Shown: in pieces, positions 9,604 to 42,037 of the stretch
Layout: every line of letters starts with the position of its first letter
How positions within the stretch are numbered: the stretch's first letter is position 1
Source: Falsiroseomonas tokyonensis
GTDB lineage: Bacteria > Pseudomonadota > Alphaproteobacteria > Acetobacterales > Acetobacteraceae
Direction of reading: 5' to 3'
DNA length: 64,000 nucleotides
Assembly: GCF_019024325.1 (NCBI RefSeq)
Contig: NZ_JAFNJS010000009.1
Coordinates: 1-64,000, forward strand
Notes under the pieces: model-generated
Databases searched by the model: none
What the model was told of the DNA's origin: nothing
The model's input: the letters and a program-made list of their open reading frames with translations, nothing else
Made by a program: the position numbers and the translations under genes

Positions 9604-9813
9604 GCAGGGGGACGCTGTCCCCCTGCACCCCCTGCCAAGGGGCAGTGGCCCCTTGGAACCCTTGAATCTTGAGCAGGAATGGAGAGGGGGCCGGAGCGAC
9701 CGCATGATCTGCGGTACCGCGGGCCCCCTCTCCATTCCTGCTCAAAGGTCCTGAGGTCCAGGAGGCCACTGCCTCCTGGCGGGAGGGGTGCGGGGAGGGC
9801 AGAGCCCTCCCTG
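9604..9813 (+). repeat. Hairpin-array intergenic element, copy 1
   Basis: Five stem-loops lie in a row: 9604-9626 (GCAGGGGGA arms), 9635-9656 (CCAAGGGGC arms), the central repeat with perfect 22-bp arms at 9671-9692 and 9722-9743 around a 29-nt loop, 9758-9779 (CCAGGAGGC arms) and about 9793-9811 (GGGAGGGC arms). The same array recurs in reverse at 41824-42037. There is no coding potential beyond chance. The element fills most of the 425-bp gap between the ATP-grasp gene and rpmI. The family is not one I can name. Confidence 0.85.
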
Positions 9814-9942
9814 CGAACCACCCAGCGCCAGCCACCCTCTCGCTTGCGCCCCGCGCTTCGCGCCGCTACAAGCCGCGCTCCGCGAGTCATGGCCTCTGGT
9901 TGGGCATGCCTGGCCGCGGATACGTGTCCTTGCCGCATGGTG

Positions 9943-10001
9943 CGGTCTGGTTCTCTGAGAGGGGGGCTGGGGTGAGTGGGACCGGCCAGACCGAGTGGAG
10001 G
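9943..10001 (+). promoter_or_regulatory. Leader stem-loop next to the rpmI ribosome binding site
   Basis: CGGTCTGG at 9943-9950 pairs perfectly with CCAGACCG at 9986-9993, ending 1 nt before the rpmI Shine-Dalgarno region (gtggagg, 9995-10001). In several bacteria the L35-L20 operon is repressed when L20 binds its own leader. A role here is inferred from position. No infC precedes rpmI in this window, so the leader belongs to a two-gene rpmI-rplT unit. Confidence 0.35.
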
Positions 10002-10006
10002 TCCAA

Positions 10007-10213
10007 ATGCCCAAGATGAAGACCAAGTCGAGCGTGAAGAAGCGCTTCACGTTGACGGCGTCCGGCCGTGTGAAGGCGGGTGTGGGCAACAAGCGCCACA
10101 TGCTGACGGCGAAGACGAACAAGATGAAGCGGCAGAACCGCGGCACGTTCCTGCTGCCGAAGCAGGACAGTGACACGGTGAAGCAGTGGATGCCTTACGG
10201 TTCGAGCCGGTAA
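10007..10213 (+). CDS. rpmI: 50S ribosomal protein L35
   Basis: This is a 68-residue basic protein of the large ribosomal subunit. It starts [20 protein letters not shown] and has the conserved KRHML and KRQNRG segments. The ATG at 10007 is preferred over an in-frame ATG 12 bp upstream because it gives the universal MPKMKTKS start and has gtggagg 6-12 nt upstream. rplT follows after 15 bp, the usual pair. The gene that usually precedes it, infC, is not here. Confidence 0.97.
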
Positions 10214-10228
10214 GGGGGGATCTGAGCC

Positions 10229-10594
10229 ATGGCACGTGTGAAGCGCGGCGTAACCAAGCACGCCCGTCACAAGAAGGTCCTCAAGCTCGCCAAGGGCTAT
10301 GTCGGCCGGTCTTCCACCGCCTATCGTCCCGCCCTGGAGCGGGTCGAGAAGGCGCTGCAGTATGCCTATCGCGACCGTCGCAACAAGAAGCGTGAGTTCC
10401 GGGGTCTGTGGATCCAGCGCATCAATGCGGCTGTGCGCGAGCATGGCATTACCTATTCCCGCTTCATGGCGGGCATCAAGGCGGCGAACATCGAGATCGA
10501 CCGCAAGGTGCTGGCGGCGCTGGCCTATGATGATGCGGCGGGTTTTGCGGCCATCGTCGAGAAGGCGAAGGGCGCCCTCCCCGCGCAGGCCTGA
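10229..10594 (+). CDS. rplT: 50S ribosomal protein L20
   Basis: This is the 121-residue large-subunit assembly protein. [56 protein letters not shown] and the globular C-terminal part with RKVLAALA are all present. It lies 15 bp after rpmI. A stem-loop with a short T-run follows the stop and separates it from pheS. Confidence 0.97.
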
Positions 10595-10627
10595 ACCATT
10601 CGGTTCGGACTGAAGACCAAACAGGAG

Positions 10628-10653
10628 GGCCGTCCCGCAGGGGGCGGCCTTTT
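10628..10653 (+). terminator. Rho-independent terminator or attenuator between rplT and pheS
   Basis: A 9-bp stem (GGCCGTCCC at 10628-10636 with GGGGCGGCC at 10641-10649, one G-U pair, GCAG loop) is followed by TTTT. It ends 19 bp before the pheS start. The short T-run suggests partial termination, so pheST may be read both from rplT and from its own start. No leader peptide rich in Phe codons is visible. Confidence 0.6.
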
Positions 10654-10671
10654 CCGTATCCGGATGCTGGC

Positions 10672-11760
10672 ATGATGACGGACGATTTGGCGGCACTGCG
10701 GCAGGAAGCGGAGGCGGCGCTGGCGGGCGCTCAGGATCTGCGAGCGCTCGATGCGGTGCGGGTGGCGGTGCTCGGCAAGTCCGGCAGCCTGAGTGGGCTG
10801 CTGAAGGGGCTGGGTGCCGTTCCCGCCGACCAGCGGAAGGAACGCGGCGCTGCGCTGAACCGCCTCAAAGGTGAGGTCGAGGCGCTGCTGGAAACTCGAA
10901 AAGCGGCGCTGGAGGCGGCGGCGCTGGAGGCGCGGCTGAAGGCGGAGCGGCTGGATGTGTCGCTGCCGCCGCGGCCCTTCGCGCCGGGCACGGCGGCGGA
11001 GGGTGGGATTCACCCGATCAGCCGGACGATCGAGGAGCTGACCGCGATCTTCGGTAGCATGGGTTTTCGCGTCGTCGAGGGGCCGGATATCGAGGGCGAC
11101 TGGTACAATTTCGGCGCGCTGAACATCCCGGACCATCACCCGGCGCGGCAGGACCACGATACGTTTTACATGCCGGGGACGGATGCGGCGGGGCAGCGGC
11201 TTGTGCTGCGGACGCAGACCTCGCCCCTGCAGATCCGCACCATGCTGGGCGAGCAGCCGCCCATCCGCATCATCGCGCCGGGCCGCACCTATCGCGCCGA
11301 CCATGATGCGACGCACAGCCCGATGTTCCACCAGGTGGAGGGGCTGGTGATCGACCGCGGGATCACGCTCGGCCATCTGAAGGGCTGCCTGACCGACTTT
11401 CTCCGAGCTTTCTTCGGCATCAGTGATCTGCCGGTGCGGTTTCGCAGCAGCTACTTCCCGTTCACCGAACCGTCGATGGAAGTGGACATCGGCTGGAACA
11501 AGAAGACCGGCGAGCTCGGCGGTGGCGGCGATTGGCTGGAGATTCTGGGCAGCGGCATGGTGCATCCGAAGGTGCTGGCCAATTGCGGGCTGGACCCGCG
11601 CGAATGGCAGGGCTTTGCCTTTGGCATGGGGATCGAGCGCATCACCATGCTGAAGCACGGCATGCCCGACCTGCGCCCCTTCTACGAAAGCGATCTGCGC
11701 TGGCTGCGGCATTGGGCGGCGGACCCGCTGGCGCCGGCCAGCCTGCATGAGGGGATCTGA
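10672..11760 (+). CDS. pheS: Phenylalanyl-tRNA synthetase alpha subunit
   Basis: This is the catalytic alpha chain of the (alpha-beta)2 enzyme that charges tRNA-Phe. The 362-residue protein has an N-terminal coiled-coil arm (about 1-85) and the class II core: VVEGPDIEGDWYNFGALNIP, RTQTSPLQIRTM (motif 2 region), MFHQVEGLVID and motif 3 FAFGMGIERITMLKHGMPDLR. It begins MMTDD, so translation could start at 10672 or 10675. pheT begins 3 bp after its stop, so the pair is coupled. Confidence 0.97.
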   Translation: MMTDDLAALRQEAEAALAGAQDLRALDAVRVAVLGKSGSLSGLLKGLGAVPADQRKERGAALNRLKGEVEALLETRKAALEAAALEARLKAERLDVSLPPRPFAPGTAAEGGIHPISRTIEELTAIFGSMGFRVVEGPDIEGDWYNFGALNIPDHHPARQDHDTFYMPGTDAAGQRLVLRTQTSPLQIRTMLGEQPPIRIIAPGRTYRADHDATHSPMFHQVEGLVIDRGITLGHLKGCLTDFLRAFFGISDLPVRFRSSYFPFTEPSMEVDIGWNKKTGELGGGGDWLEILGSGMVHPKVLANCGLDPREWQGFAFGMGIERITMLKHGMPDLRPFYESDLRWLRHWAADPLAPASLHEGI

Positions 11761-11763
11761 GCG

Positions 11764-14265
11764 ATGAAGTTTCCCCTGAGCTGGCTGCGCGAGCATCTGG
11801 AGACGGATGCGACGCTGGAGACGATTTCCACGACGCTGTCGGCCATCGGCATCGAGGTCGAGGGCATCGAGGACAAGGCGGCGGCGCTCGGCAGTTTCCG
11901 GATCGCCCGCGTGATCGAGGCGGTGCGGCACCCGAATGCCGACCGGCTGCGGCAGCTGCGCGTGGATGTGGGCGATGGGCGCGAGCTGTCCGTGGTCTGT
12001 GGCGCGCCGAATGCGCGGACGGGCATGAAGGGCGTGCTGGCGGTGCCGGGCGATTTCATCCCGGGCACGGGCATCACGCTGAAGCTCGGCGAGATTCGTG
12101 GCGTGAAGTCCGAGGCGATGATGCTCTCCTCGCGGGAGATGGGCCTCGGAGACGATCATTCGGGCATCGTGGACCTGCCGGAGGATGCGCCGGTTGGCGC
12201 CAGCTATGTGAAGTGGGCTGGCCTCGACGACCCGGTGATCGAGATCAAGGTCACGCCCAACCGGGGCGACGCGCTTTCCGTTCGCGGCATTGCGCGGGAC
12301 CTGGCGGCGGCGGGCCTCGGCACGCTGAAGCCTTGGGAGGTGGCGCCCGTGACGCCCGCCTATCCGGCGCCGTTGCAGTGGCGCATTGCCGATCCGCGCG
12401 CCTGCACCTGGGTGCTGGGGCGCGCGGTGCGCGGCGTGAAGAACGGGCCGTCGCCGCAGTGGCTTCAGGACCGGCTGGTGGCGATCGGGCTGCGGCCGAT
12501 CAGCGCGCTGGTCGATATCACCAACTACTTCACCTTCGCCGTCGGCCGGCCGCTGCATGTCTTCGACGTGTCCAAGGTTGCGGGCACCGAGCTGACCATG
12601 CGCATGGCCCGGGCCGGCGAGGAGCTGCTGGCGCTGAACGGCAAGACCTATGCGCTGACCGAGGAAGACGGCGTCATCGCCGATGCGAATGGCGCGGAGG
12701 CGCTGGGCGGCATCATCGGTGGTGAGCATTCGGGCTGCGATGAGGCCACCACCGAATGCTTTATCGAATGCGCGCTCTTCGACCCGGTGCGCATCGCGCT
12801 GTCGGGCCGCCGGCATGATGTGCGCACCGATGCCCGCTCCCGCTTCGAACGCGGCATCGACCCGGCGCTGCTGCCCAAGGCGCTGGAGGCCGCGACGCGG
12901 ATGATCCAGGAGCTGTGTGGCGGCGAGGCTTCGGAGATTTCCGAAGCCGGCGCCCAGCCCGCCTGGCAGCGCGAAGCCACGCTGCGCTTCGCCCGGGTGC
13001 GCGACCTCGGCGGGCTGGACCTGCCGGAAGACGAGATCGTCGGTCGCCTCACCCGCCTCGGCTTCGCCGTGACGCGGCGCGAGGCGGATCGCGTGACGGT
13101 CGCCGTGCCGTCCTGGCGCAACGACATCGCCGGCGCCGGCGCGCTGGCGCAGGACCCGTCCCTGCCCGCGGACCGCGCGCGCATCGCCGCCGAAGGCTGC
13201 GCCGAGATTGAGCCGGAATGCGACCTGGTGGAGGAGGTGCTGCGCCTCGGCGGGCTGGATGCCGTGCCGGCGGTCTCGCTGCCCGTGACCTCCGCCGTGC
13301 CGCGCCCGGCGCTGTCGGCGAAGCAGGTGCGCGCGGCGCTGGCGCGGCGGGTGCTGGCTTCGCGCGGCATGCAGGATTGCGTGACCTACGGCTTCCTGGA
13401 CCGCGCCACGGCGGCGCTGTTCGGCCCGGCTGCGGAGCAGCCTGGAACATGGTCTCCGCCGGATGCGCTGCACCTGGAAAATCCCATCGCCAGCGACCTG
13501 GACCAGATGCGGCCGACGCCGGTGGCCTCCCTCGCCATGGCCGCCGCCCGCAATGCGGCCCGCGGCTTTGCGGATGTCGCGCTGGGCGAGATCGGCGGTG
13601 CCTATCGCGATCCGGCAGCAGGCGTCAGCCAGCTCGCCGTCGCCGCCGGGGTTCGCGCGGGCCAGACGACGGCCAACTGGGCGGCGCCGGCGCGGCCCGT
13701 CGATGCGCTGGATGCGAAGGGCGATGCGCTGGCGGTGCTGGGTGCGCTGGGCGTGCCCATGGCGGCCGTGATGCTGACCACCGATGCGCCGGGCTTCTAC
13801 CACCCCGGCCGCTCCGGCGTGCTCCGCCAGGGGCCGAAGACGGTGCTGGCCACCTTCGGCGAGCTGCACCCGCAGGTGGTGAAGGCGCTCGGCCTGGCCG
13901 GGCCCGTGGTGGCCTTCGAGGTCTTCCTCGATGCGATCGCGGAGCCGAAGCGCCGCAAGAAGGGCCTGCCGGACCTGCCCGCCTTCCAGCCGCTGAAGCG
14001 GGACTTCGCCTTCGTGGTGGATGCGTCGGTGCCGGCGGAGCAGCTGCTGCGCGCCGCCCGCAATGCCGACAAGACGCTGGTCAGCGAGGTCACCCTCTTC
14101 GACCGCTACGCCGGCGAGCGGATGGCTGAAGGAAAGATCAGCTTGGCCATCCAGGCCACGCTGCAGCCGCGCGAGCGCACCCTGACCGATGCGGAGATCG
14201 AGGCGGTGACGGCCAAGATCGTCGCCGCGGTGGCGAAGGCGACTGGCGCGGTGCTACGAGGGTAG
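11764..14265 (+). CDS. pheT: Phenylalanyl-tRNA synthetase beta subunit
   Basis: This is the 833-residue beta chain that supports tRNA binding and editing. In order: the N-terminal MKFPLSWLREHL, the tRNA-binding EMAP-like domain (about 40-155), the B3/B4 editing domain (about 210-380), the B5 domain (about 405-480), the catalytic-like core (FLDR, LENPIASDLDQMRPT) and the FDX-ACB anticodon-binding domain at the end (PLKRDFAFVVD, VTLFDRYAG). A 25-residue insertion after SWRNDIAGAG (ALAQDPSLPADRARIAAEGCAEIEPECD) is slightly unusual within the B5 region. It is co-transcribed with pheS. Confidence 0.97.
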   Translation: MKFPLSWLREHLETDATLETISTTLSAIGIEVEGIEDKAAALGSFRIARVIEAVRHPNADRLRQLRVDVGDGRELSVVCGAPNARTGMKGVLAVPGDFIPGTGITLKLGEIRGVKSEAMMLSSREMGLGDDHSGIVDLPEDAPVGASYVKWAGLDDPVIEIKVTPNRGDALSVRGIARDLAAAGLGTLKPWEVAPVTPAYPAPLQWRIADPRACTWVLGRAVRGVKNGPSPQWLQDRLVAIGLRPISALVDITNYFTFAVGRPLHVFDVSKVAGTELTMRMARAGEELLALNGKTYALTEEDGVIADANGAEALGGIIGGEHSGCDEATTECFIECALFDPVRIALSGRRHDVRTDARSRFERGIDPALLPKALEAATRMIQELCGGEASEISEAGAQPAWQREATLRFARVRDLGGLDLPEDEIVGRLTRLGFAVTRREADRVTVAVPSWRNDIAGAGALAQDPSLPADRARIAAEGCAEIEPECDLVEEVLRLGGLDAVPAVSLPVTSAVPRPALSAKQVRAALARRVLASRGMQDCVTYGFLDRATAALFGPAAEQPGTWSPPDALHLENPIASDLDQMRPTPVASLAMAAARNAARGFADVALGEIGGAYRDPAAGVSQLAVAAGVRAGQTTANWAAPARPVDALDAKGDALAVLGALGVPMAAVMLTTDAPGFYHPGRSGVLRQGPKTVLATFGELHPQVVKALGLAGPVVAFEVFLDAIAEPKRRKKGLPDLPAFQPLKRDFAFVVDASVPAEQLLRAARNADKTLVSEVTLFDRYAGERMAEGKISLAIQATLQPRERTLTDAEIEAVTAKIVAAVAKATGAVLRG

Positions 14266-14281
14266 CCGGCAGGGGTCTGCG

Positions 14282-14698
14282 ATGGGCCGGGTCGTTTCGG
14301 TGCAGGTGGATGCGGAGGGCCGGCTGGTACTGCCGGAGGAAGTCCGCGCCGCGCTGGGCGTGCAGGGCGGGGGTGAAGTGCTGGTGCAGGCGCACGACGG
14401 CCGCCTGCATATCCGCCCGCGCGACGCCGCCATCCGCGATGCCCAGGCCATGGTGGCCTCCATGGTCCCCGCCGGCCTCAGCCTGCAGCTGATGCCTCGG
14501 CATCGGCGACCTCGACCTGCAGAGCTGGAACATCCTGGCCGGCCCCGCCGGCCTGCCGGCCGATCTCGCCGCCCGCACCCAGGACCTGCTGCGCCGCGCC
14601 AGCGCCCATCCGGGGCTGGAGGAGAAGCTGCGCAGCAACGGCCTGCTGGCCCTGCCGGCCCTGGACCCCGCGTCGACCCGCGCCCGCATCCTGGCTGA
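14282..14698 (+). CDS. AbrB/MazE-type DNA-binding protein with an aberrant C-terminus
   Basis: Residues 1-52 form a SpoVT/AbrB swapped-hairpin domain ([43 protein letters not shown]). In antitoxins of this type a short helix follows that reads like [19 protein letters not shown], as here, and then VDELIAERR. In this gene the sequence instead runs from about residue 68 into the wrong frame of a degraded transporter gene, giving a long Arg/Pro-rich tail with no family look. No toxin gene follows. It is probably an antitoxin relic broken by recombination. It is downstream of pheT by 16 bp. Confidence 0.55.
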
Positions 14699-14750
14699 CC
14701 GGCCGCGCTGGCAGGAAATGGTCCAGATCAGCGGCGCGCGGATCGAGTAG
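14493..14750 (+). pseudogene. C-terminal remnant of a Bug-family (TctC-like) binding protein
   Basis: Frame 14493-14750 (TGA immediately upstream at 14490-14492, TAG stop at 14748-14750) reads [61 protein letters not shown]. This matches the last 80 or so residues of Bug proteins, where the usual form is 'SWNGLFAPAGTP...IA.RL...V..AL.DP...RL' and 'E..RWG.VV...G'. There is no start codon or N-terminal domain. It overlaps the aberrant tail of the AbrB-type gene in another frame, so the junction near 14490 is a fusion scar. Confidence 0.6.
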
Positions 14751-14853
14751 CCGGGGCGGCCAGGCCCGGAAAGGTTTGGACTTCGGCGGGTTCTGCCCTA
14801 TCTCCCGGGTGACGCAGGCGGGATTTCCCGCCATAGCCGGCGCCCGGAAGCAG

Positions 14854-16659
14854 ATGACCGAAACACCCCTCTCCCGCATCCGCAACTTCTCGATCATCGC
14901 CCATATCGACCATGGGAAATCGACCCTCGCGGACCGGCTGATCCAGACCACCGGCACGGTGGCGCTGCGCGACATGAAGGAACAGCTCCTCGACAATATG
15001 GAGCTGGAGCGGGAGCGCGGCATCACCATCAAGGCGCAGACGGTGCGCCTGCACTACAAGGCGAATGACGGCGAGACCTATGTCCTCAACCTGATGGACA
15101 CGCCGGGCCATGTCGACTTCGCCTATGAGGTGAGCCGCTCGCTCGCGGCCTGCGAGGGCAGCCTGCTCGTGGTCGATGCCTCCCAGGGCGTCGAGGCGCA
15201 GACGCTGGCCAATGTGTACCAGGCGCTGGACGCCGGGCATGAGATCGTGCCGGTGCTGAACAAGATTGACCTGCCCGCCGCCGAGCCCGACCGGGTGAAG
15301 CAGCAGATCGAGGATGTGATCGGCCTCGATGCCTCGGACGCCGTGATGATCTCGGCCAAGACCAGCCTGAACATCGAGGGCGTGCTGGAGGCCATCGTCA
15401 CCCGCCTGCCGCCGCCGACCGGCGATGCCGAGAAGACGCTGACCGCCCTGCTGGTGGACAGCTGGTACGATGCCTATCTCGGCGTGGTGGTGCTGGTGCG
15501 CGTGCGGGATGGGCGGCTCCGCAAGGGCATGAAGATCCGCATGATGTCGAACGGCACCGCCCATACGGTGGAGCAGGTCGGCGTCTTCACGCCCAAGATG
15601 GTGGCGGTGGAGAGCCTCGGCCCGGGCGAGATGGGCTATGTCACCGCCGCGATCAAAACCGTGGCTGACACCAATGTCGGCGACACGCTGACCGACGACC
15701 GCAACCCCGCCACCGAGGCCCTGCCCGGCTTCAAGCCCTCCATCCCCGTGGTCTGGTGCGGGCTGTACCCCGTGGATGCGGATGACTTCGAAAAGCTCCG
15801 CGAATCGGTTGGAAAACTGCGGCTGAACGACAGCAGCTTCCACTACGAGATGGAGAACAGCGCGGCGCTCGGCCTCGGCTATCGCTGCGGCTTTCTCGGC
15901 CTGCTGCACCTCGAGATCGTGCAGGAGCGACTGTCGCGCGAGTTCGACCTCGACCTGATCGCGACCGCACCCTCCGTCGTCTACAAGATCACCAAGACGA
16001 ACGGCGAGGAGATCGAGCTGCACAACCCGGCCGATATGCCGGACCCCAGCGTGATCGAGGAAATCAGCGAGCCCTGGATCAAGGCCACCATCATGGTGCC
16101 GGAGGAATATCTCGGCTCCGTCCTGACGCTCTGCAACGAACGCCGCGGCGAGCAGGTGGAGCTGACCTATGTCGGCACCCGCCCCATGGCGGTCTATCGC
16201 CTGCCGCTGAACGAGGTGGTCTTCGACTTCTACGACCGGCTGAAGTCGGTATCCCGCGGCTATGCCAGCTTCGATTACACGGTGGATGGCTACCAGGCGG
16301 GCGACCTGGTGAAGATCTCCATCCTGGTGAATGCGGAACCGGTCGATGCGCTGTCCTTCATGGCGCATCGCACCCAGGCGGACCGCCGCGGCCGGCAGAT
16401 CTGCGAGAAGCTGAAGGAGCTGATCCCGCGCCAGCTCTTCAAGATCCCGATCCAGGCCGCGATCGGCGGCCGCGTGATTGCGCGCGAGACGATCAGCGCC
16501 ATGTCGAAGGATGTGACCGCGAAGTGCTATGGCGGCGACATCAGCCGCAAGCGCAAGCTGTTGGATAAGCAGAAGGAAGGCAAGAAGCGGATGCGGCAGT
16601 TCGGCAAGGTCGAAATCCCGCAGAGCGCCTTCATCGCCGCCCTGAAGATGGATGCCTGA
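14854..16659 (+). CDS. lepA: Elongation factor 4 (LepA)
   Basis: LepA is a ribosome-bound translational GTPase involved in initiation and back-translocation under stress. The product is 601 residues. It has the P-loop AHIDHGKST at 16-24, the switch motif DTPGH, the NKID motif, EF-G-like domains III and V, and the family-specific C-terminal domain ([46 protein letters not shown]). The ATG at 14854 gives the usual [20 protein letters not shown] start; the open frame extends 26 codons upstream without similarity. Confidence 0.97.
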
Positions 16660-16697
16660 AACCCAACCCCCTGCCTGCCTGAGGGAACGAGACCAAG

Positions 16698-17678: not shown

Positions 17679-17733
17679 TTTTTTGGGACGCTGCCGCGGG
17701 CGGGTGGCCAAGTGGGCCGCCCGGTTATCTAAG

Positions 17734-17848
17734 CCCTCCCCCGCAAGCGGGGGGTTGCGGCGCTGCCGCAACGCCGGAGGCTGGTTGGGTGGGGGGTAAG
17801 GTAGCGCCTACCCCCACCCCGACCCTCCCCCGCGAGCGGGGGAGGGAG
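17734..17848. repeat. CCCTCCCCC intergenic repeat, copy A (convergent junction)
   Basis: Two palindromic cores, CCCTCCCCCGC-aa-GCGGGGGG at 17734-17754 and ACCCTCCCCCGC-ga-GCGGGGGAGGG near 17822-17847, flank ggttgggtggggggtaa and its near-complement tacccccaccccg. The block therefore forms nested stem-loops. It fills the gap between two converging genes and probably serves as a two-way terminator. Related copies lie at 24422-24508, 37558-37586 and 62913-62948. Confidence 0.7.
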
Positions 17849-17853
17849 AGCGA

Positions 17854-20492: not shown

Positions 20493-20641
20493 GGCGCGGA
20501 CTCCTGGCGGATCTGGGTCTTGGGGGGCTGTGGCGGCGTTTGGCGGGAAGGGTGCCGCCCGCCCCCGGCGGCGTCAACGCGCGGCGCTTGATCGCGCAGC
20601 GGGAAGGCGCCAAGCATCCGGCAACAGGGAAGGATCGGATC

Positions 20642-21673: not shown

Positions 21674-21715
21674 CCCCCCTTCCCGCCCAGGATATCGCGG
21701 CCCAAACTGCGCGCC

Positions 21716-23431: not shown

Positions 23432-23450
23432 CCCTCCCCAGGACCCAGAC

Positions 23451-24416: not shown

Positions 24417-24421
24417 GATCT

Positions 24422-24508: not shown

Positions 24509-24516
24509 CTAATGCA

Positions 24517-30613: not shown

Positions 30614-30698
30614 GGGCTTTCCCTTCGAGGGGTGCAACGCAGCAGGTTTCACCACGAATGCCACGCGTGATGGCGTGACCTGTCAAGCGCAAATCCGC

Positions 30699-31756
<1,058 letters not shown>

Positions 31757-31760
<4 letters not shown>

Positions 31761-34748: not shown

Positions 34749-34765
34749 CGGCAGGTCTCCGGTCG

Positions 34766-35716
34766 TCAGGGGGGCGGAATGCTGGACAAGGGGGTGATGT
34801 GCCAGCCGGCATTCTTCCTGGCGTAATAGGTATTGAGCAAGCGCGTTGTGACCGGCCCCGGCACGCCGGCACCGATCGGCGCGCCATCCAGCCGCGTCAC
34901 CGGAAACAGGCCGCAGGAGGTGGCGGTCAGGAAGGCTTCCTGCGCCGCCGCCAGCTGCTCCGGCATCAGCCTTCCGTAGCGGGCGGGGATGCCGAGTTCG
35001 GCGGCCAGTTCGAACATGCTGCGGCAGGAGATCCCCTCCAGCACGCCGGCTTCCGGCGAGAGCAGCGCGCCGTCGATCACCGCCACCACGTTGAAGCCCG
35101 GCGCCTCCGCCACCGCGCCGTCCGTGGCGCAGAGGATGGGCACGTCGAATCCCTCGTCCTTCGCCAGGAAGGCGGCGCGGATGAAGTCGCCCCAATGGGT
35201 GTTCTTCCACACCGGGTTCACCGCGCTGGCCGGAATCCGCGCCACGTCGCGCACCAGCATCGCATTCTGCCCGCGCTGCATCTCCGCCGGCTGGCCGCGC
35301 AGCACCAGCGGCGTGACGGTGGCGAAGAAGCGGTTCTGCGAGAGCGTCGGGTCGCGCGACCCCGGCACGGCCATGCCGCGCGTGCAGGCGAAATAGACCA
35401 GCGCATCCGGCAGCCCGCTGCGTCGGACCAGATCCGCCAGCAGCCGCCGCATCGCCTCCCGCGTCATGCCGGGGTCCAGCCGCAGCCCGGACAGCGAGGC
35501 GAAGAACCGGTCGAGGTGATCCTCCAGCCGGAAGAAGCCGCCCTGCCAGACATGCACCACGTCATAGGTCATGTCGGCATACATCAGGCCGAGGTCGCGG
35601 ACCGGAATCTTCGCCTCGGCCAGCGGCACCACCGCGCCATCGATGAAGCCGAGGGCGCGACTGAAATCCGCGTTCTCCACGGTCAGGTGCGTGGGAACCT
35701 GCAAAGCCTCGGCCAT
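34766..35716 (-). CDS. Class IV PLP-dependent aminotransferase (BCAT / D-amino-acid transaminase fold)
   Basis: This is a 316-residue fold-type IV aminotransferase. The PLP lysine is probably K171 in NPVWKNTHWGDFIRA. The later EAPGFNVVAV and TATSCGLFPV segments contain the phosphate-binding and Glu residues expected for branched-chain and D-amino-acid transaminases. The motif around the lysine is not the standard one of IlvE (usually KS.NYL), so a specialised amine or D-amino acid substrate is possible. It lies 17 bp before the polyamine-type receptor and is probably in the same operon, which suggests it acts on the imported amine. Confidence 0.8.
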   Translation of the reverse strand: MAEALQVPTHLTVENADFSRALGFIDGAVVPLAEAKIPVRDLGLMYADMTYDVVHVWQGGFFRLEDHLDRFFASLSGLRLDPGMTREAMRRLLADLVRRSGLPDALVYFACTRGMAVPGSRDPTLSQNRFFATVTPLVLRGQPAEMQRGQNAMLVRDVARIPASAVNPVWKNTHWGDFIRAAFLAKDEGFDVPILCATDGAVAEAPGFNVVAVIDGALLSPEAGVLEGISCRSMFELAAELGIPARYGRLMPEQLAAAQEAFLTATSCGLFPVTRLDGAPIGAGVPGPVTTRLLNTYYARKNAGWHITPLSSIPPP

Positions 35717-35762
35717 CGGGCACTCCTCGGGCGCCGAGCATAGGAAGGCGCCGCGCGCCGCG

Positions 35763-36467
35763 TCAAACCGGGGGCTGGAAGGCGCCCTGCCCCGCCACCT
35801 CGGCCCAGGCGCGGAAGGCGGGCGAGGGCGTGACGCGGCCGGATTGCAGCAGGTCGAGCCAGCAGGCGGTTGCCTTGACGAAGCGGTTCACGCCGCGCGG
35901 CCAGATCGCCAGGCTCATCGCCTCCGCCATCGCCGGCTCCGGCACGCCCAGCGCATAGGCCGATTCCAGCGCGACGCGCAGGCCCCAGATCTCCTCGCCG
36001 GCCGTGTGCACGCCGATCAGCGCGAGGCGCGCGAGGCCGGGCGAAAGCGGCGAGCCATCGATCAGCGCATCGCAGCCTTGCAGATATTCGCGCGCCGCCG
36101 GCAGCGCCGGAAACTGCCCCTGCCAATGCGCGGCGATGCAGGCATAGCGCGGCGCACCCGCCGCCCAGCCCACCAGGCGGAAAACCGCGGCCGCCAGCGC
36201 ATCGGCGCCGCCCGCCAGGCGGAACTTGTGCAGGTGATGGGTGCCGACCGGCTCCTCGCAGGCGGCGAGGATGGCCAGCCAGACCACCTCCTTCTCCAAC
36301 GGCGCAAGGTGGCGCTGCTCCAGCGTCAGGGCGCGATACATCGCCTCATAGGCCGCATGCAGTTCCGGCAGCGCGGCGGCCATGGCGCCGTGATGCGGCA
36401 GCACGAAGCCGCGCGCGGCGCGGATTTGCTCCAGCGCGCCGCGGATCTCATCGGGGGTTCGGTCCAT
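35763..36467 (-). CDS. Carboxymuconolactone decarboxylase/AhpD-like protein
   Basis: This 234-residue all-helical protein has one clear CMD motif (LEKEVVWLAILAACEEPVGTHHLHKF: E60, C70, H77, H78, H80) and a second, degenerate helical repeat (ALIGVHTAGEEIW) near 150. AhpD-type enzymes use two cysteines; here only C70 sits in the motif, so peroxidase activity is uncertain. It starts the minus-strand group that continues into the aminotransferase and the polyamine-type transporter, 46 bp ahead of the aminotransferase. Confidence 0.65.
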   Translation of the reverse strand: MDRTPDEIRGALEQIRAARGFVLPHHGAMAAALPELHAAYEAMYRALTLEQRHLAPLEKEVVWLAILAACEEPVGTHHLHKFRLAGGADALAAAVFRLVGWAAGAPRYACIAAHWQGQFPALPAAREYLQGCDALIDGSPLSPGLARLALIGVHTAGEEIWGLRVALESAYALGVPEPAMAEAMSLAIWPRGVNRFVKATACWLDLLQSGRVTPSPAFRAWAEVAGQGAFQPPV

Positions 36468-36571
36468 GCCGGAGTGTCGGAAGCGGCGCCGGGGCGGTCA
36501 AGCCGCCAGGGGTGGCGCAACCGCGTGGCTTGGGGTCAGTATTGTCCTGTCAAACAGAACAAGAGGTTCCC

Positions 36572-37546
36572 ATGCGCCGACGCCAAGCCCTGACATTGCT
36601 CGCCGCGCCCCTGCTGGCACCCCGCTTGGCCCGCGCCCAGGCCGCCTGGGCGCCGAGCCGGCCGGTCACGCTCGTCGTGCCCTTCCCGCCCGGCGGGCCG
36701 ACGGACTTGGCCGCGCGCGTCGTGCAGCAGGGGATGTCGACGGCACTCGGCCAGACCGTGGTGGTGGACAACCGGCCGGGTGCGACGGGCGCCATCGGGT
36801 CGCGCTACGTCGCGCAGCAGCCGGCGGATGGCCATACGCTGCTGGTGGCCGCCAGCGGCACGCTGACCATCAACCCGGTGGTCATGCGCAACCCGGGCTA
36901 TGACGTGGAGAAGGACTTCGTGCCGGTCACGCTGGTGATGACGGCGCCGAACATGCTGGTGGTGCATCCCTCCATCCCCGTCCGCACCGTGCCCGAGGTG
37001 GTGGCCTGGATGAAATCCATCCGCGGCGGCCCGGCCTATGCCTCCTCCGGCGTCGGATCCTCGGAACAGCTGGGGATGGAGCTGTTCAAGCTGCTGACGG
37101 GGACGGAGGCGATTCCCGTGCCCTTCCCCGGCGGCCCGGCGGCGGCCACCGCCGTCATCCAGAATACCGCGCCCTTCGCGGTACTGAACGCGGCCACGGT
37201 GGGCGCGCATGTGCAGGCCGGGCGGCTGCGCGGCATCGCCATCTGCGGCCCGAACCGCTTCCCGCAGCTGCCGGATGTGCCAACCATGGCCGAGCAGGGC
37301 CTGCCCGACCATGTCTCCGGCTCCTGGACCGCCATCGTGGCGCCCACGGGCACGCCGGAGCCGGCGCTGGCGCGGCTGAACGAGGTGATCGTCGCCGCGC
37401 TGAAGACGCCGGAGGTGACGCAGCGCCTGGCCAATGTCGGCTTCGCGGTGGATGCCACGAGCCGCGAGGCGCTGGGCAAGCTGATCGCGGACGACCTGAC
37501 GCGCTGGCGGCGCGTGGTGCGGGAGGCGCGGATCGAGGTGAACTGA
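36572..37546 (+). CDS. Bug-family tripartite tricarboxylate transporter receptor
   Basis: This is a 324-residue periplasmic receptor. The signal peptide MRRRQALTLLAAPLLAPRLARAQ is followed by SRPVTLVVPFPPGGPTDLAARVVQQ, the diagnostic Bug start. It ends with GSWTAIVAPTGTPEPALARLNEV and WRRVVREARIEV. The ATG at 36572 has aagagg 6-11 nt upstream; the open frame extends 20 codons further without similarity. It diverges from the AhpD-like gene with a 104-bp gap, and has no membrane partner nearby. Confidence 0.88.
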   Translation: MRRRQALTLLAAPLLAPRLARAQAAWAPSRPVTLVVPFPPGGPTDLAARVVQQGMSTALGQTVVVDNRPGATGAIGSRYVAQQPADGHTLLVAASGTLTINPVVMRNPGYDVEKDFVPVTLVMTAPNMLVVHPSIPVRTVPEVVAWMKSIRGGPAYASSGVGSSEQLGMELFKLLTGTEAIPVPFPGGPAAATAVIQNTAPFAVLNAATVGAHVQAGRLRGIAICGPNRFPQLPDVPTMAEQGLPDHVSGSWTAIVAPTGTPEPALARLNEVIVAALKTPEVTQRLANVGFAVDATSREALGKLIADDLTRWRRVVREARIEVN

Positions 37547-37557
37547 GGGGGGCAGAG

Positions 37558-37586
37558 GCCCCCACCCCAACCCTCCCCAGAGGGAG
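37558..37586. repeat. CCCTCCCCC intergenic repeat, partial copy D (convergent junction)
   Basis: The segment ccccaccccaaccctccccagagggag keeps the GGG-rich arm and a shortened palindromic core (CCCTCCCC-aga-GGGAG). It lies in the 49 bp between the Bug gene stop and the helicase stop and is the most decayed of the four copies. Confidence 0.5.
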
Positions 37587-37595
37587 TTTATTCGC

Positions 37596-39392
37596 TTAAC
37601 CCTGCGGGCGGCGCTTGGGGCCGGCGTAGGGCGCACGTGGCTTGTCGCCGCGGGGCGGGCCGCGATAGGCGCGGGGCGGGCCAGCCGGCCGTTCCGGGTG
37701 CATGGAACCAGCCGGCCGTTCCGGGTGCATGGAACCAGCCGGCCGTTCCGGCCGCGGCGGCGCCGGGCGGTCGCGCGGCGGCTCCCGCCGCGGGGCGCGG
37801 TTCGGCGCCGGCGCATGCGCCATCTGCTCGATCCGGATGCGGTCGTCGTCATCCCCCGTCTCACGCTGGGCAGACGCGGCAAAGCGCGCGGCGGCCCAGG
37901 GGGCGATCTCCACCCGGGTCTCGCGGTCCATCACCTCGATCCGGCCCACTTCCTTCCGCGTCAGGTCGCCCTTGCGGCAGACGAAGGGCAGGATCCAGCG
38001 CGGATCGGCCTGGTCGTGCCGGCCGATGGACAGGCGGAACCACACCCCCTCCCCGCCCTGTTCGCGCGGCGGGCGCGGGGCCGGGGGCGGCGGGGCCGAG
38101 AGTTCTTCAGGCGCGGGCAGGGAGGATCGCAGCGCCTGGAACAGCGCGGCCGCCACCTGCTCCGGCGTCTTGTCCACCAGCAGGGCGCGGGCGAGGTCCA
38201 GGTCATCCTCATCCGCCACCGCATCGACCGCGGTGCGGGCCTGGGCGGCCAGGCGCTCGCGGTCCTTGGCGCGGACATCCTCGGCGCTCGGCGGGCCGGA
38301 CCACTCGGCCTGGATGCGGGCATAGGACAGCAGCCGCTCCGCCAGGCGCCGGCGGGTATGCGCCACCATCAGCACCGCCACGCCCTTGCGCCCGGCGCGA
38401 CCGGTGCGGCCGGATCGGTGCTGCAGCGTCTCCTTGTCCCGCGGCAGCTCGGCATGGATGACCAGGCCGAGATCCGGCAGGTCGATGCCGCGCGCCGCGA
38501 CATCGGTGGCGACGCAGACCCGCGCGCGGCGGTCGCGCAGCGCCTGCAGCGCGCGGTTGCGCTCCGCCTGGGTCAGCTCGCCGGACAGGGCCACGGCCGA
38601 GAAGCCGCGCTCCACCAGGCTGCCATGCAGGCGGTTCACCTGTTCGCGCGTGTTGCAGAAGACCATGGCGCCGCCGGCATCGTACCAGCGCAGCGCATTG
38701 ACCACCGCGGCCTCCACCTCCCGCGGCCCGACCAGCATGGCGCGATAGGCGATGTCGCCATGCCGCTCGCCTTCCACCGTCGCCGCGATGCGCAGCGCAT
38801 TGCGCTGGTAGGAGGCGGCGAGCGCCACGATCTCCCGCGGCACGGTGGCCGAGAACATCAGGGTGCGCCGATCCTCCGGCGCGCCTTCCAGGATGGCTTC
38901 CAGGTCGTCCCGGAAGCCCATGTCCAGCATCTCATCGGCCTCGTCCAGCACGGCGGCGCGCAGCTGGGACAGGTCCATATTGGTGCGGTCGAGATGGTCC
39001 CGCAGCCGGCCCGGCGTGCCGACGACAATCTCCGCCCCGATGCCCAGCGCCCGCCGATCCGCCCGCACATCGGTGCCGCCGACGCAGGCGATCACGCGCA
39101 CATGGGTGCCGGAATAAAGCCAGGCCAGCTCGTCCCGCACCTGCATCGCCAATTCGCGCGTCGGCGCGATGACCAGCGCCAGCGGCAGCCGGCTGCGGCC
39201 GCCGGAGAGCACCTGCTCGGCAATGGCCAGGCCGAAGGCGACCGTCTTGCCGGAGCCGGTCTGGGCGGAGACCAGCAGGTCCCGCCCCGCGGTTGCAGGG
39301 TCCAGCACGGCGGCCTGGACGGGGGTGGGTTCGGCATAGCCGCGCTCGGCCAGGGCCTGGGCGAGACGCTCGGGGAGATCGGGAAAGGGCAT
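37596..39392 (-). CDS. DEAD-box ATP-dependent RNA helicase
   Basis: This is a 598-residue RNA helicase. It has the Q-motif (EPTPVQ near 21-26), motif I AQTGSGKT at 43-50, motif II DEAD at 150-153, motif III SAT near 180 and motif VI HRSGRTGRAGRKG near 330. A CsdA/DbpA-like RNA-binding domain follows at about 455-525 (VWFRLSIGRHDQADPRWILPFVCRKGDLTRKEVGRIEV). The last 70 residues are Arg/Pro-rich with a PERPAGSMH repeat. DeaD/DbpA proteins act in ribosome assembly and RNA turnover. The role here is probably ribosome biogenesis. Confidence 0.92.
   Translation of the reverse strand: MPFPDLPERLAQALAERGYAEPTPVQAAVLDPATAGRDLLVSAQTGSGKTVAFGLAIAEQVLSGGRSRLPLALVIAPTRELAMQVRDELAWLYSGTHVRVIACVGGTDVRADRRALGIGAEIVVGTPGRLRDHLDRTNMDLSQLRAAVLDEADEMLDMGFRDDLEAILEGAPEDRRTLMFSATVPREIVALAASYQRNALRIAATVEGERHGDIAYRAMLVGPREVEAAVVNALRWYDAGGAMVFCNTREQVNRLHGSLVERGFSAVALSGELTQAERNRALQALRDRRARVCVATDVAARGIDLPDLGLVIHAELPRDKETLQHRSGRTGRAGRKGVAVLMVAHTRRRLAERLLSYARIQAEWSGPPSAEDVRAKDRERLAAQARTAVDAVADEDDLDLARALLVDKTPEQVAAALFQALRSSLPAPEELSAPPPPAPRPPREQGGEGVWFRLSIGRHDQADPRWILPFVCRKGDLTRKEVGRIEVMDRETRVEIAPWAAARFAASAQRETGDDDDRIRIEQMAHAPAPNRAPRREPPRDRPAPPRPERPAGSMHPERPAGSMHPERPAGPPRAYRGPPRGDKPRAPYAGPKRRPQG
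37681..37751 (-). repeat. 27-bp tandem repeat inside the helicase gene
   Basis: A 27-bp unit (beginning ccagccggccgttccgggtg) is repeated exactly at 37681-37707 and 37708-37734, with a further partial unit to about 37751. In frame it encodes the nine-residue unit PERPAGSMH in the disordered C-terminal tail. Identical units point to recent slippage, so copy number may vary between strains. Confidence 0.85.
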
Positions 39393-39471
39393 TATGGCGG
39401 CTCTCTAGCCCATAGCGGCCCGGGACGCACGAAAACCCTGGCCGCAGCGCAGCATGGCTGACCCGCGCAAG

Positions 39472-40746
39472 CTACCCCCCGTGCAGCACCACCCCCGCCG
39501 CGCGCAGCCGGGCCAGCTCCTCCGCCCCCAGCAGCGGGCCCAGCACCGCGTCATTGTCCGCGCCCAGCCTGGGCGCCGGATTGCGCAGGATGCCCGGCGT
39601 TTCGGACAGGCGCGGCACCTCGCCATGCATGGGCAGCCAGCCCTCCGGCATCTCGGCATCCGGCACCTCGACCAGTGCCTCGCGCTCGGCAATGTAGGAA
39701 TCCGCGTCCAGCTCGGCCACATCCATGATCGGGCCGATGGTCACGCCGTCCCGGTCGAATTTCGCCAGCGCCTCCTCCCGGTCCATGCCCGCGATGGCAT
39801 CCCGGATCACGCCGTCGATCGCCTCGATATTCGCCAGGCGGTCGGGATTGGTCCGGAAACGCGGATCCTCCACCAGCTCCGGCCGGCCGATGCTGTGCAT
39901 GAGGCGCACGAAGACCGCCTGGGTGCTGGTGGACAGGCTCAGCCAGCCGCCATCCCTGGTGCGATAGGCATTGCGCGGCGCGGTATTGGTGCTGCGGCTG
40001 CCGGTGCGGGGCTTCACCTTCCCGCTGACCCGCCAATTCGCCATCTGCGGCTCCAGCACCGCAAAGATCGGCTCGAATAGCGAGAGGTCCACCACCTGGC
40101 CCTGCCCGCTCCGCGCCGCATGCCACAGCGCGATCATGGCGGCCGAGGCGCCATACAACCCCGCATAGGCATCCGCCATGAACATCGGCGGCAGCACCGG
40201 CTCCCGGTCCGCGAAACCGTTCAGCGCCGCAAAACCGGCATAGCCCTCCACCAGCGTCCCGAATCCCGGCTTGTGGCGGAACGGCCCGGTCTGTCCCCAG
40301 CCGGAAATCCGCACGATCACCAGCTTCGGATTGATCGCCCGCAGCACCTCCGGCGCCAGGCCCATTTCCTCCAGCACACCCGGCCGGAAACTCTCGACGA
40401 AGATGTCGGCCCCGGCCACCAGCCGCTTCACCACCGCGATCGCCTCGGCCTGGCGCAGATCCAGGCAGAGGCTGCGCTTGTTGCGGCACCAGGTCTTCCA
40501 GGCGGTCTCGATGCCGCCCACCTTCCAGGCGCGCAGGCTGTCCCCCGCCGGGGGCTCCACCTTCAGCACCTCCGCCCCATGATCGGCCAGCACCTTGGTG
40601 AGCATATTGCCGGCGACCAGGCGCGAGAGATCCACCACCCGGACCCCCTCCAGCGCCCCGCGCGCCGCCGGGTCAAACTGCCGCCGCCGCTTCGGCTGCC
40701 GCGCCTTGCCTTGCTGCACCCGCAGACCCCTCCCCACCCGCGGCAA
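39472..40746 (-). CDS. CaiB/BaiF family CoA-transferase (class III)
   Basis: This is a 424-residue family III CoA-transferase that moves CoA between carboxylic acids. The fold begins LEGVRVVDLSRLVAGNMLTKVLADHGAEVLKVEPP; CRNKRSLCLDLRQAEA and the catalytic Asp D192 in MADAYAGLYG follow. The first 30 or so residues (VGRGLRVQQGKARQPKRRRQ) are basic and atypical, so the true start may be later, near residue 27-33. It diverges from the OxyR-type gene with a 111-bp gap. No acyl-CoA dehydrogenase or thiolase is adjacent. The acid substrate is unknown. Confidence 0.85.
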   Translation of the reverse strand: MPRVGRGLRVQQGKARQPKRRRQFDPAARGALEGVRVVDLSRLVAGNMLTKVLADHGAEVLKVEPPAGDSLRAWKVGGIETAWKTWCRNKRSLCLDLRQAEAIAVVKRLVAGADIFVESFRPGVLEEMGLAPEVLRAINPKLVIVRISGWGQTGPFRHKPGFGTLVEGYAGFAALNGFADREPVLPPMFMADAYAGLYGASAAMIALWHAARSGQGQVVDLSLFEPIFAVLEPQMANWRVSGKVKPRTGSRSTNTAPRNAYRTRDGGWLSLSTSTQAVFVRLMHSIGRPELVEDPRFRTNPDRLANIEAIDGVIRDAIAGMDREEALAKFDRDGVTIGPIMDVAELDADSYIAEREALVEVPDAEMPEGWLPMHGEVPRLSETPGILRNPAPRLGADNDAVLGPLLGAEELARLRAAGVVLHGG

Positions 40747-40857
40747 GGCGTAGGCGCGGGTCTGGGACCGGTCAATCCGCCCCCTCGCCGACCCCGCCGG
40801 CCGCTAGACCGTTTACGTTTAGATGCGTATCTGCACCCTGCCGCAGGGAAAACTCTC
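40747..40857. promoter_or_regulatory. Divergent promoter region between the CoA-transferase and oxyR-type genes
   Basis: This 111-bp gap holds an imperfect dyad AGATGCGTATCT (40821-40832, 10 of 12 symmetric) 26 bp before the regulator start. It could be a LysR-type site, which usually has a T-N11-A core near such a dyad. Autoregulation and control of the neighbour are inferred from the divergent layout. Confidence 0.35.
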
Positions 40858-41796
40858 ATGACACTCGCCGGCCTGTCGCTGCGTGACCTCGAATACCTCC
40901 TCGCCGTGGCGGAGCACCTCAGCTTCGGCCGCGCCGCCCAGGCCTGCGCCGTCAGCCAACCCACCCTCTCCGCCCAGATCCGCAAGATCGAGGAACTGCT
41001 GCAGGTCGAATGCTTCGAACGCGCCCCGCGCGGCGTGCTCGTCACCGCCCGCGGCGCCGAACTGATCGCCCAGGCCCGCCTCGTCGTCGCCGAAGCCCGC
41101 CGGATGTTCGAGATCGCGGCGGCCGGCGCGGCACCCCTCGAAGGCACCTTCCGCCTCGGCGTCATCTCCACCCTCGGCCCCTACCTGGTCCCCTTCCTGC
41201 TGAAGCCGCTGCGCGCCCGCTTCCCCCACCTCCGCCTGCTGCTCTCCGAAGGGCTCACCCGCCACCTGGCCCGCCAGGTGGAGGACGGCGAACTCGACGC
41301 CATCCTCGCCGCCTCCCCCCTGCCCGGGCCGGACCTCACCGAACTGAAGCTGTTCCGGGAGGAATTCGTCCTGGTGGTCCCCCGCGACCACCCCCTCGCC
41401 CGCGTCGAACAGGTGATGCGCGACGACATCCCAACCCCGGAACTCATCCTGCTCAGCGAAGGCCACTGCCTGCGCGACCACGCGATCGCCTACTGCCCCA
41501 CCCGCCTGCAGGTCGACCGCCCCGAACTCCAGGCCGCCAGCCTGGAAACCCTGCGCCAGATGGTCGCCGCCGGCGTCGGCGTCTCCTTCATGCCGCAACT
41601 CGCCGTGCAGATCGGCGCCCTGCTCGACGACATGGTCGCCTACCGCCGCATCAGCGACGCCAACCTGGGCCGCGACGTCGCCCTGTTCCACCGCCCCGGC
41701 TTCAGCCGCATCCGCGACGTCCGCCTCCTCCGCCAAGCCATCCGCGAAATCCTGGCCGAGCACAGCGCCGTCAAAGTGGCGACGACGCTGGCGTAG
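40858..41796 (+). CDS. oxyR: LysR-family regulator of the OxyR type
   Basis: This is a 312-residue LysR-type regulator. It has the N-terminal helix-turn-helix (LEYLLAVAEHLSFGRAAQACAVSQPTLSAQIRKIEELL) and a C-terminal effector domain. The segment SEGHCLRDHAIAYC places C204 and C213 at the same spacing as C199 and C208 of E. coli OxyR (GHCLRDQAMGFC), the peroxide-sensing disulfide pair. It would therefore sense hydrogen peroxide. No katG or ahpC is adjacent; only the divergent CoA-transferase. The ATG at 40858 gives the correct HTH distance. The symbol is assigned on the Cys pair. Confidence 0.8.
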   Translation: MTLAGLSLRDLEYLLAVAEHLSFGRAAQACAVSQPTLSAQIRKIEELLQVECFERAPRGVLVTARGAELIAQARLVVAEARRMFEIAAAGAAPLEGTFRLGVISTLGPYLVPFLLKPLRARFPHLRLLLSEGLTRHLARQVEDGELDAILAASPLPGPDLTELKLFREEFVLVVPRDHPLARVEQVMRDDIPTPELILLSEGHCLRDHAIAYCPTRLQVDRPELQAASLETLRQMVAAGVGVSFMPQLAVQIGALLDDMVAYRRISDANLGRDVALFHRPGFSRIRDVRLLRQAIREILAEHSAVKVATTLA

Positions 41797-41823
41797 GGTC
41801 GAGGGGGCGCGGCGCCGGTGGCT

Positions 41824-42037
41824 TCGCAGGAGGGGCTCTGCCCCTCCCGCACCCTCCCCGCCAGGAGGCAGCGGCCTCCTGGACCTCAGGACCTTTGAGT
41901 AGAAATGGAGAGGGGGCCGAAGCGGCCGCATGATCTGCGGTACCGCCGGCCCCCTCTCCATTTCTACTCATGATTCAAGGGTTCCAAGGGGCCACTGCCC
42001 CTTGGCAGGGGGTGCAGGGGGACAGCGTCCCCCTGCA
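41824..42037 (-). repeat. Hairpin-array intergenic element, copy 2 (inverted relative to copy 1)
   Basis: The same five stem-loops as at 9604-9813 appear in reverse order: aggggctctgcccct near 41831-41845, CCAGGAGGC arms at 41861-41882, the central 22-bp arms near 41896-41917 and 41947-41968, CCAAGGGGC arms near 41983-42004, and GCAGGGGGA arms near 42013-42035. The central arms read GAGTAGAAATGG where copy 1 reads GAGCAGGAATGG; both arms changed together. The element sits between two converging genes. Confidence 0.85.

What the first reader, a model, noticed from the sequence alone, without database searches (positions are those of the whole stretch)
9604..42037. Paired hairpin-array elements with covarying arms and a flipped central loop
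Copies at 9604-9813 and 41824-42037 are reverse complements over their flanks: all four outer hairpins and the linkers match in reverse order. The central 22-bp inverted repeat differs at two positions per arm (GAGCAGGAATGG versus GAGTAGAAATGG), and both times the opposite arm carries the matching change, so pairing is kept. Yet the 29-nt loop (CCGCATGATCTGCGG core) reads in the same strand orientation in both copies, so relative to the flanks it is inverted. Covariation argues for a selected fold or for copying from one arm to the other. The flipped loop argues for recombination across the arms. Both elements lie in gene-end regions. I cannot name a family for it.
Basis: seen in the sequence. 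Interest (0 to 1): 0.8.

Follow-up and report, generated by a model that had tools for sequence, protein, structure and literature searches.

The report
Self-mirroring hairpin elements at gene ends
A family of mirror-symmetric, hairpin-rich DNA elements sits just behind genes in this bacterium and its relatives; their paired arms change together and their central loops flip, as expected if DNA copying itself hops between the two arms.

Summary
Both copies belong to a non-coding element (about 210 bp core): four small hairpins around a long central hairpin. A covariance model finds 33 copies in this genome (66 strand matches) and matches in 45 of 150 genomes of the family, this one included. 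Elements sit behind genes: of 183 copies with both sides callable, 93 lie between convergent gene ends, 89 between co-directional genes, 1 between two starts. Central arms are perfect over up to 22 bp in 118 of 140 copies despite many arm sequences. Loops are flipped relative to flanks in 6 of 22 callable family-A copies here. Two paralogues with identical arms have loops that agree 39/39 reversed but 30/39 directly; loops also flip at orthologous sites. Whole elements invert in place at 28 of 42 orthologous sites. Best explanation: replication template switching between inverted-repeat arms, a published cause of arm homogenisation and spacer inversion, acting on a REP/BIME-like gene-end element. 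No Rfam match; no RAYT transposase in 3 genomes. The gene-end function is inferred.

The parts
9603..9627 (+). copy 1, outer hairpin H1 (11-bp stem, 3-nt loop)
9635..9656 (+). copy 1, hairpin H2 (9-bp stem)
9669..9692 (+). copy 1, left arm of central hairpin (24 nt)
9693..9721 (+). copy 1, 29-nt central loop, forward relative to flanks
9722..9745 (+). copy 1, right arm, perfect complement of the left arm
9758..9779 (+). copy 1, hairpin H3
9793..9811 (+). copy 1, outer hairpin H4
41829..41847 (-). copy 2, outer hairpin H4
41861..41882 (-). copy 2, hairpin H3
41896..41919 (-). copy 2, central arm
41920..41946 (-). copy 2, central loop, inverted relative to flanks
41947..41970 (-). copy 2, central arm, perfect complement
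41984..42005 (-). copy 2, hairpin H2
42013..42037 (-). copy 2, outer hairpin H1
8469..9581 (+). gene (ATP-grasp-like by my reading, no family search run) ending 21 nt before copy 1
40858..41796 (+). LysR-type regulator gene (name by my reading, no family search run; start taken at an inner ATG of a longer ORF) ending 32 nt before the outer hairpin of copy 2
42060..43028 (-). convergent gene (tripartite-tricarboxylate/Bug-type binding protein by my reading, no family search run) ending 22 nt from copy 2

Best explanation
It is a discrete, non-coding, two-fold symmetric element (H1-H2-arm-loop-arm-H3-H4), present in 33 copies here and in varying numbers in relatives, placed just behind stop codons. 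SHOWN: copy number, position, covariation, loop inversion and whole-element inversion at fixed sites. INFERRED, mechanism of change: during replication the nascent strand folds back, or jumps to the other strand, at the long inverted repeat. One arm is then copied from the other, which keeps the arms perfect while their sequence changes, and a jump across both arms turns the loop round. Recombination between copies replaces or turns the whole unit, because its ends are also inverted repeats. INFERRED, role: an orientation-independent structure at the 3' ends of transcripts (termination without a U tract, or a barrier to 3' exonucleases) serving both converging genes. Two-fold symmetry would make every flip harmless, so flips accumulate.
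For: Arms: 118 of 140 copies perfect when cut to at most 22 bp, 22 mismatched cells of 3058; covariation far above shuffles and slid controls. In 24 same-orientation orthologous pairs with at least 93% identity over 36 nt on each side, 26 arm differences are on both sides and 7 one-sided; 9 of the 26 are transversions that no G-U step can bridge (pairs share sites, so events are fewer). G-run and C-run lengths agree in 33 of 35 copies (23 are 4/4, 10 are 5/5). Loop inversion: L091/L097 39/39 reversed versus 30/39 direct, collinear from H2 to H3; orthologous L345/L385 with identical arms, loop 0.93 inverted versus 0.71 direct, and L368/L381 with a 6-nt loop inverted, 1.0 versus 0.82. Whole-unit inversion: L328/L342; 46 same, 44 flipped, 4 unclear of 94 pairs, or 28 of 42 sites with at least one flip, 13 without, 1 unclear. 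Replacement: at 13 sites shared by G000 and G001, 8 are flipped, 1 has equal arms, and 9 G000 copies resemble their best paralogue more than the orthologue (best of many against one, which favours paralogues). Published match: template switching causes 'homogenization of IR arms' and 'IR spacer inversion' (PMC8604942, passages); inverted loops at bacterial rRNA hairpins (PMC8794818, passages). Position: 93 convergent, 89 tandem, 1 divergent of 183; median 26 nt from stop to hairpin for 90 ends; flank orientation random to transcription, 15 sense and 18 antisense.
Against: Conservation of the architecture over many genera (45 of 150 genomes, 32 of 102 genera) suggests selection for the fold, so arm identity need not be purely mutational. 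Most arm differences between orthologues could come from whole-copy replacement rather than change in place. The arm finder picks the best inverted repeat, which favours perfect arms; uncut, 53 of 78 second-clade stems are perfect, with 34 mismatches in 1846 pairs. PMC8794818 itself found compensatory change plus loop inversion rare (6 cases) and not enriched, though loop inversion alone was (69 cases). No replication or expression data. No U tract and no terminator-like site, so the terminator reading is weak. In tandem settings the loop (not the flanks) is 15 sense to 5 antisense, which a purely neutral flip does not predict; the sample is small and related.
Confidence: 0.65

Rival explanations
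1. Selection on an RNA fold. Arms covary because a structured 3' end (terminator or exonuclease barrier) is needed; loop flips are tolerated side effects.
For: Position at gene 3' ends in 182 of 183 callable copies; architecture conserved across genera; folds with z -12.0 and -12.8 on the two strands.
Against: Little sign of G-U tolerance: mismatched cells are 4 G-U type, 12 A-C type, 6 other on the genomic strand, and in tandem settings on the sense strand 2 G-U, 4 A-C, 3 other. Few one-sided intermediates. Does not explain loop inversion. A fold needed on both strands would also forbid G-U, so this is not decisive.
Confidence: 0.3
2. Concerted evolution alone: new arm-loop-arm units arrive by non-allelic gene conversion from other copies, and no change happens within a hairpin.
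For: Copies resemble their best paralogue more than the orthologue at 9 of 13 (G000) and 11 of 13 (G001) sites; a segment of about 10 kb is inverted between two copies.
Against: L345/L385 keep identical arms and near-identical outer flanks while the loop is inverted (H2 also differs between them, on both of its arms), and L313/L355 keep 94% of the flanks with one arm pair exchanged and a diverged loop. Gene conversion still needs a source for the inverted loop.
Confidence: 0.3
3. A miniature mobile element (MITE) moved by a transposase in trans.
For: Discrete unit with inverted ends; no element seen in relatives at some sites: G007 at site 2 and G011 at site 1, G002 and G007 behind the gene next to the C1:1139 copy.
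Against: No Y1_Tnp/RAYT in the 3 genomes searched; other transposase families were not searched; no target-site duplication was looked for beyond reading the sites.
Confidence: 0.2
4. A dedicated site-specific invertase flips the loop.
For: Clean inversion between inverted repeats; inner half of the arms is G-rich and similar in the copies listed.
Against: Outer half of the arms differs between copies and clades; inversion of a 6-nt loop leaves no room for a recombinase synapse (knowledge, not tested). Recombinase genes were not searched.
Confidence: 0.05
5. Assembly artefact at repeats.
For: G002 contigs C158, C51 and C32 begin inside elements.
Against: Flips recur in several separately assembled genomes, mostly inside long contigs with unique flanks, over loops of 6 to about 33 nt.
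Confidence: 0.03

Closest known systems
REP / BIME elements (GTAG and CGTC REPs; PMC3733652, passages read)
   Same: Short intergenic palindromic repeats, tens of copies, hairpins that can also pair as one large structure; mostly between convergent or co-directional ORFs and next to 3' ends.
   Different: Unit is about 210 bp with five hairpins; no RAYT-type transposase in 3 genomes; GTAG and CGTC not enriched; that paper says CGTC repeats are missing in Acetobacteraceae.
RIME, ERIC and similar 100-200 bp palindromic elements (recalled, not tested)
   Same: Larger palindromic intergenic units in proteobacteria.
   Different: No sequence comparison was made.
Template-switch (quasipalindrome) mutation (PMC8604942, PMC8794818, passages read)
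   Same: Arm homogenisation and spacer or loop inversion at inverted repeats.
   Different: The passages seen describe separate events in yeast genes and rRNA; here one multi-copy family shows both repeatedly.
Minute hairpin-loop inversions of chloroplast DNA (search listing and abstract starts only)
   Same: Inversions tied to palindromes differ between related plants.
   Different: Plastid sites, not a dispersed bacterial repeat.

Membership tests
REP/BIME superfamily | 20-40 bp single palindromic units tagged by unpaired GTAG or CGTC | tested here: not met
   GTAG in 18 of 65 and CGTC in 49 of 65 copies against 32% and 89% of 215-base window tiles: no enrichment (unpaired position not tested); unit about 210 bp
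REP/BIME superfamily | RAYT (Y1_Tnp) transposase in the genome (GTAG type) | tested here: not met
   PF01797: 0 of 3 genomes (G000, G001, G007), control rings in 5 of 14
REP/BIME superfamily | intergenic, next to 3' ends, rare between divergent genes | tested here: met
   93 convergent, 89 tandem, 1 divergent of 183; rough window map 4 divergent of 29 gaps (which misses the LysR gene)
Known structured RNA (Rfam 15) | match above the gathering score | tested here: not met
   only a tRNA in the window
Intrinsic (U-tract) terminator | GC hairpin followed by a T run | tested here: not met
   0 sites at both window copies; other copies not scanned
Template-switch signature at inverted repeats | arm homogenisation | tested here: met
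   118 of 140 perfect over up to 22 bp; 26 two-sided against 7 one-sided differences
Template-switch signature at inverted repeats | spacer inversion with arms unchanged | tested here: met
   L091/L097, L345/L385 and L368/L381
Template-switch signature at inverted repeats | dependence on replication fork and nucleases | not testable with these tools
   needs mutants
MITE | terminal inverted repeats with target-site duplication and a cognate transposase | tested here: inconclusive
   inverted ends present; duplication and transposase not established

The most novel reading that the evidence does not exclude
A palindromic unit that maintains, re-orients and perhaps spreads itself to gene ends through replication template switching and recombination alone, without any transposase, while serving as a flip-tolerant two-way 3'-end device for converging genes.
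Probability: 0.15. Interest if true: 0.8.

Novelty: new variant of a known kind. Interest (0 to 1): 0.58.

Why it matters
Compensatory change in hairpins is usually read as proof of selection on RNA. Here dozens of paralogous and orthologous copies of one bacterial element show arm co-change together with loop inversion, the pair of marks expected from replication template switching. That makes the family a natural test bed for separating mutation bias from selection in covariation, and for measuring spacer inversion at bacterial palindromes. It also marks a gene-end element spread across a bacterial family for which my paper searches found no description.

Tried and rejected
Rfam search of the window: nothing but a tRNA. 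Intrinsic terminator scan at the two window copies: nothing. RAYT/Y1_Tnp: absent in 3 genomes. Idea that the outer hairpins are a general terminator module: rejected, because all 26 H2-pattern hits in the genome (up to 3 mismatches) lie inside the first 30 elements (compared by position). Idea that G-U excess would show RNA-level selection: flank-oriented counts first looked G-U rich, but counted on genomic or sense strands there is no excess. Idea that loop orientation is fixed to transcription: 15 to 5, left as a lead. First gene caller gave wrong neighbours in places and was replaced by the frame scan. Papers: searches listed no paper that by title or abstract start describes this element. 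In PMC12306157 the words roseomonas, acetobacter and rhodospirillales do not occur; in PMC2267715 the words gluconobacter, acetobacter and rhodospirillum do not.
Full report
What is there. The window holds two copies of a symmetric hairpin array as described. Order in copy 1: H1, H2, long arm, loop, long arm, H3, H4; copy 2 is the same unit on the other strand. Each half resembles the reverse complement of the other half, so a search with one copy hits most copies on both strands (56 matches at 30 distinct places; 40 of 51 candidates scored). A covariance model of 145 positions built from 35 copies (A1; model R1) finds 66 matches in the same genome, which pair up as 33 places, 3 of them new (150 of 4744 first-look candidates scored). 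The H2 hairpin pattern occurs 26 times with up to 3 mismatches, each inside one of the first 30 elements, with no hit for the reversed-pattern control: the element is a whole unit, not a free terminator module.

Where it comes from. G001 and G007 have contigs of the same lengths as Roseomonas oleicola ROY-5-3 (847967, 465724) and Falsiroseomonas selenitidurans BU-1 (154303); both species stand in Falsiroseomonas, Roseomonadaceae, in NCBI. The tool places the window's genome in the same genus. All 14 genus mates searched have matches to copy 1 (25 of 59 genomes in all, own included). Copy number varies: at E of 1e-12 or better the model gives 50, 33, 47 and 38 strand matches in G003, G005, G012 and G013 but 4 in G008 and 1 in G010. 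In the 35 copies read from other genera, sequences differ greatly but the order small hairpin, small hairpin, long central hairpin, small hairpin, small hairpin is kept as far as I read them.

Position. A codon-usage frame scan on each side classed 183 elements with both sides callable: 93 between two gene 3' ends, 89 between a 3' end and a 5' end, 1 between two 5' ends (in G114, locus L280). By set (convergent, tandem, divergent): G000 17, 16, 0 of 33; G001 11, 12, 0 of 23; G002 1, 2, 0 of 3 callable of 5; G007 5, 6, 0 of 11; G003, G005, G012 and G013 together 44, 32, 0 of 76 callable of 78; G011 2, 0, 0 of 2; other genera 13, 21, 1 of 35. The caller is a heuristic trained on this genus and some calls have low scores. 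A rough gene map of the window gives 6 convergent, 4 divergent and 19 tandem gaps (it misses the LysR gene next to copy 2), so convergent sites look over- and divergent sites under-represented. For 90 gene ends the median distance from stop codon to the first strong hairpin is 26 nt, middle half 20-33 (a few are mis-set where an inner hairpin was picked). Flank orientation is random to transcription: 15 sense, 18 antisense.

Arms. In family A (35 copies) and family B (18 copies) of G000 and G001 the stems covary far above shuffles and above partners slid by 1-3 columns. Over the scored copies 118 of 140 have perfect arms when cut to at most 22 bp, with 22 mismatched cells of 3058 (seven degenerate or truncated loci of the first set were dropped: L114, L115, L121, L124-L127). 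The stem finder favours perfect stems; without the cut, 53 of 78 second-clade stems are perfect, with 34 mismatches in 1846 pairs, 10 of G-U and 9 of A-C type. There are 85 distinct 19-nt arm strings, a number inflated by start offsets; the inner, G-rich half of the arms varies less than the outer half. Length changes are shared: the G run and the facing C run are 4/4 in 23, 5/5 in 10 and unequal in 2 of 35 copies. G-U cells are not favoured (4 G-U type, 12 A-C type, 6 other).

Loops. Scoring each loop against one consensus both ways, family-A copies in G000 are 16 same, 6 flipped, 1 ambiguous, and in G001 8, 3 and 1; family B is 2, 1 and 4 in G000 and 1, 2 and 8 in G001, mostly too diverged (two flips, L092 and L107, are just at the cut-off). 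The cleanest pair is in one genome: L091 and L097 share arms and are collinear from H2 to H3, and their 39-nt centres agree 39/39 when one is reversed but 30/39 directly; L098 agrees directly with L091, 38/39. At orthologous sites, L345 and L385 have identical arms and near-identical outer flanks with the loop inverted (0.93 versus 0.71), and L368 and L381 have a 6-nt loop inverted (1.0 versus 0.82).

Whole units. Orthologous pairs were defined by both flanks: 65 pairs among G003, G005, G012 and G013 plus 29 of the first clade. Pairs touching L036, L106 or L110, four degenerate loci, and stems under 15 bp were left out. Of the 94 pairs, 46 keep and 44 invert element orientation, 4 are unclear. 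Counted by site, 28 of 42 have at least one flip, 13 none, 1 unclear. L328 and L342 show the whole unit inverted almost unchanged. At 13 sites shared by G000 and G001, 8 are flipped, 12 keep the family, only 1 keeps the arms, and the copy is closer to its best paralogue than to the orthologue in 9 (G000) and 11 (G001) cases (best of many against one). One site (G000 C57:124, G001, G007) is plainly vertical, with identical arms in all three. A segment of about 10 kb between two G000 copies is inverted in G001 with breakpoints at the elements.

Gain and loss. At copy 2's site G007 has the same two convergent genes with 20 nt between stops and no element, and G011 has copy 1's upstream gene with no element seen behind it. 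G002 and G007 show none behind the gene next to the C1:1139 copy, but there the downstream neighbour also differs. G002 carries a truncated element at copy 1's site.

How it works. Template switching at inverted repeats is reported to cause both arm homogenisation and spacer inversion (PMC8604942), and loop inversions at bacterial rRNA hairpins are shown in PMC8794818, where loop inversion alone was enriched (69 cases) but compensatory change with loop inversion was rare and was not (6 cases). In the 24 orthologous pairs with the same orientation and at least 93% flank identity, 26 arm differences are two-sided and 7 one-sided, 9 of the 26 being transversions, while the loops differ at 210 of 695 positions and linkers at 42 of 672. 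Both marks therefore appear here together, repeatedly, within one repeat family. Selection for a gene-end fold probably acts as well: the architecture and the position are too constant across genera to be mutation alone. I put 0.65 on template switching plus exchange between copies as the main cause of the covariation and flips, and hold the gene-end role (transcript termination or stabilisation) as inference only.

Comparison. It works like a REP/BIME-type gene-end palindrome, and its position matches what PMC3733652 describes for REPs (passages), but it fails the tested REP definitions (size, tags, RAYT in 3 genomes). No Rfam family matches it in the window. No paper listed in nine searches of the library describes it by title or abstract start; subscription papers are mostly not held.

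Noticed in passing
G000:C1:988 (L040), G000:C1:169 (L053), G001 L106, G002 L236: A 20-22 bp perfect palindrome with core TCGGACGCATGCGTCCGA (or TCGGACACATGTGTCCGA) replaces part of the element: a second small palindromic unit nested in the first.
   Followed up: partly
G000:C1:278-288 kb versus G001:C12:182-192 kb: Inversion of about 10 kb whose two breakpoints fall at copies of the element.
   Followed up: partly
tandem-gene copies of the first set (L031-L124): Loop orientation relative to transcription is 15 sense to 5 antisense although flank orientation is random (15 to 18).
   Followed up: partly
L138, L144, L148, L163 and others: A Ruminococcus MAG (Hm464_bin28) carries a multi-copy GC-rich hairpin, apparently unrelated, next to repeated GACATTCA motifs.
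   Followed up: no
L274-L283 (G114): In another genus the central loop is nearly absorbed: 8 of 10 copies read have a stem of 29-35 bp with a 4-12 nt loop.
   Followed up: no
G002 contigs C158, C51, C32: Contigs begin inside elements, so the element seems to break short-read assemblies.
   Followed up: no
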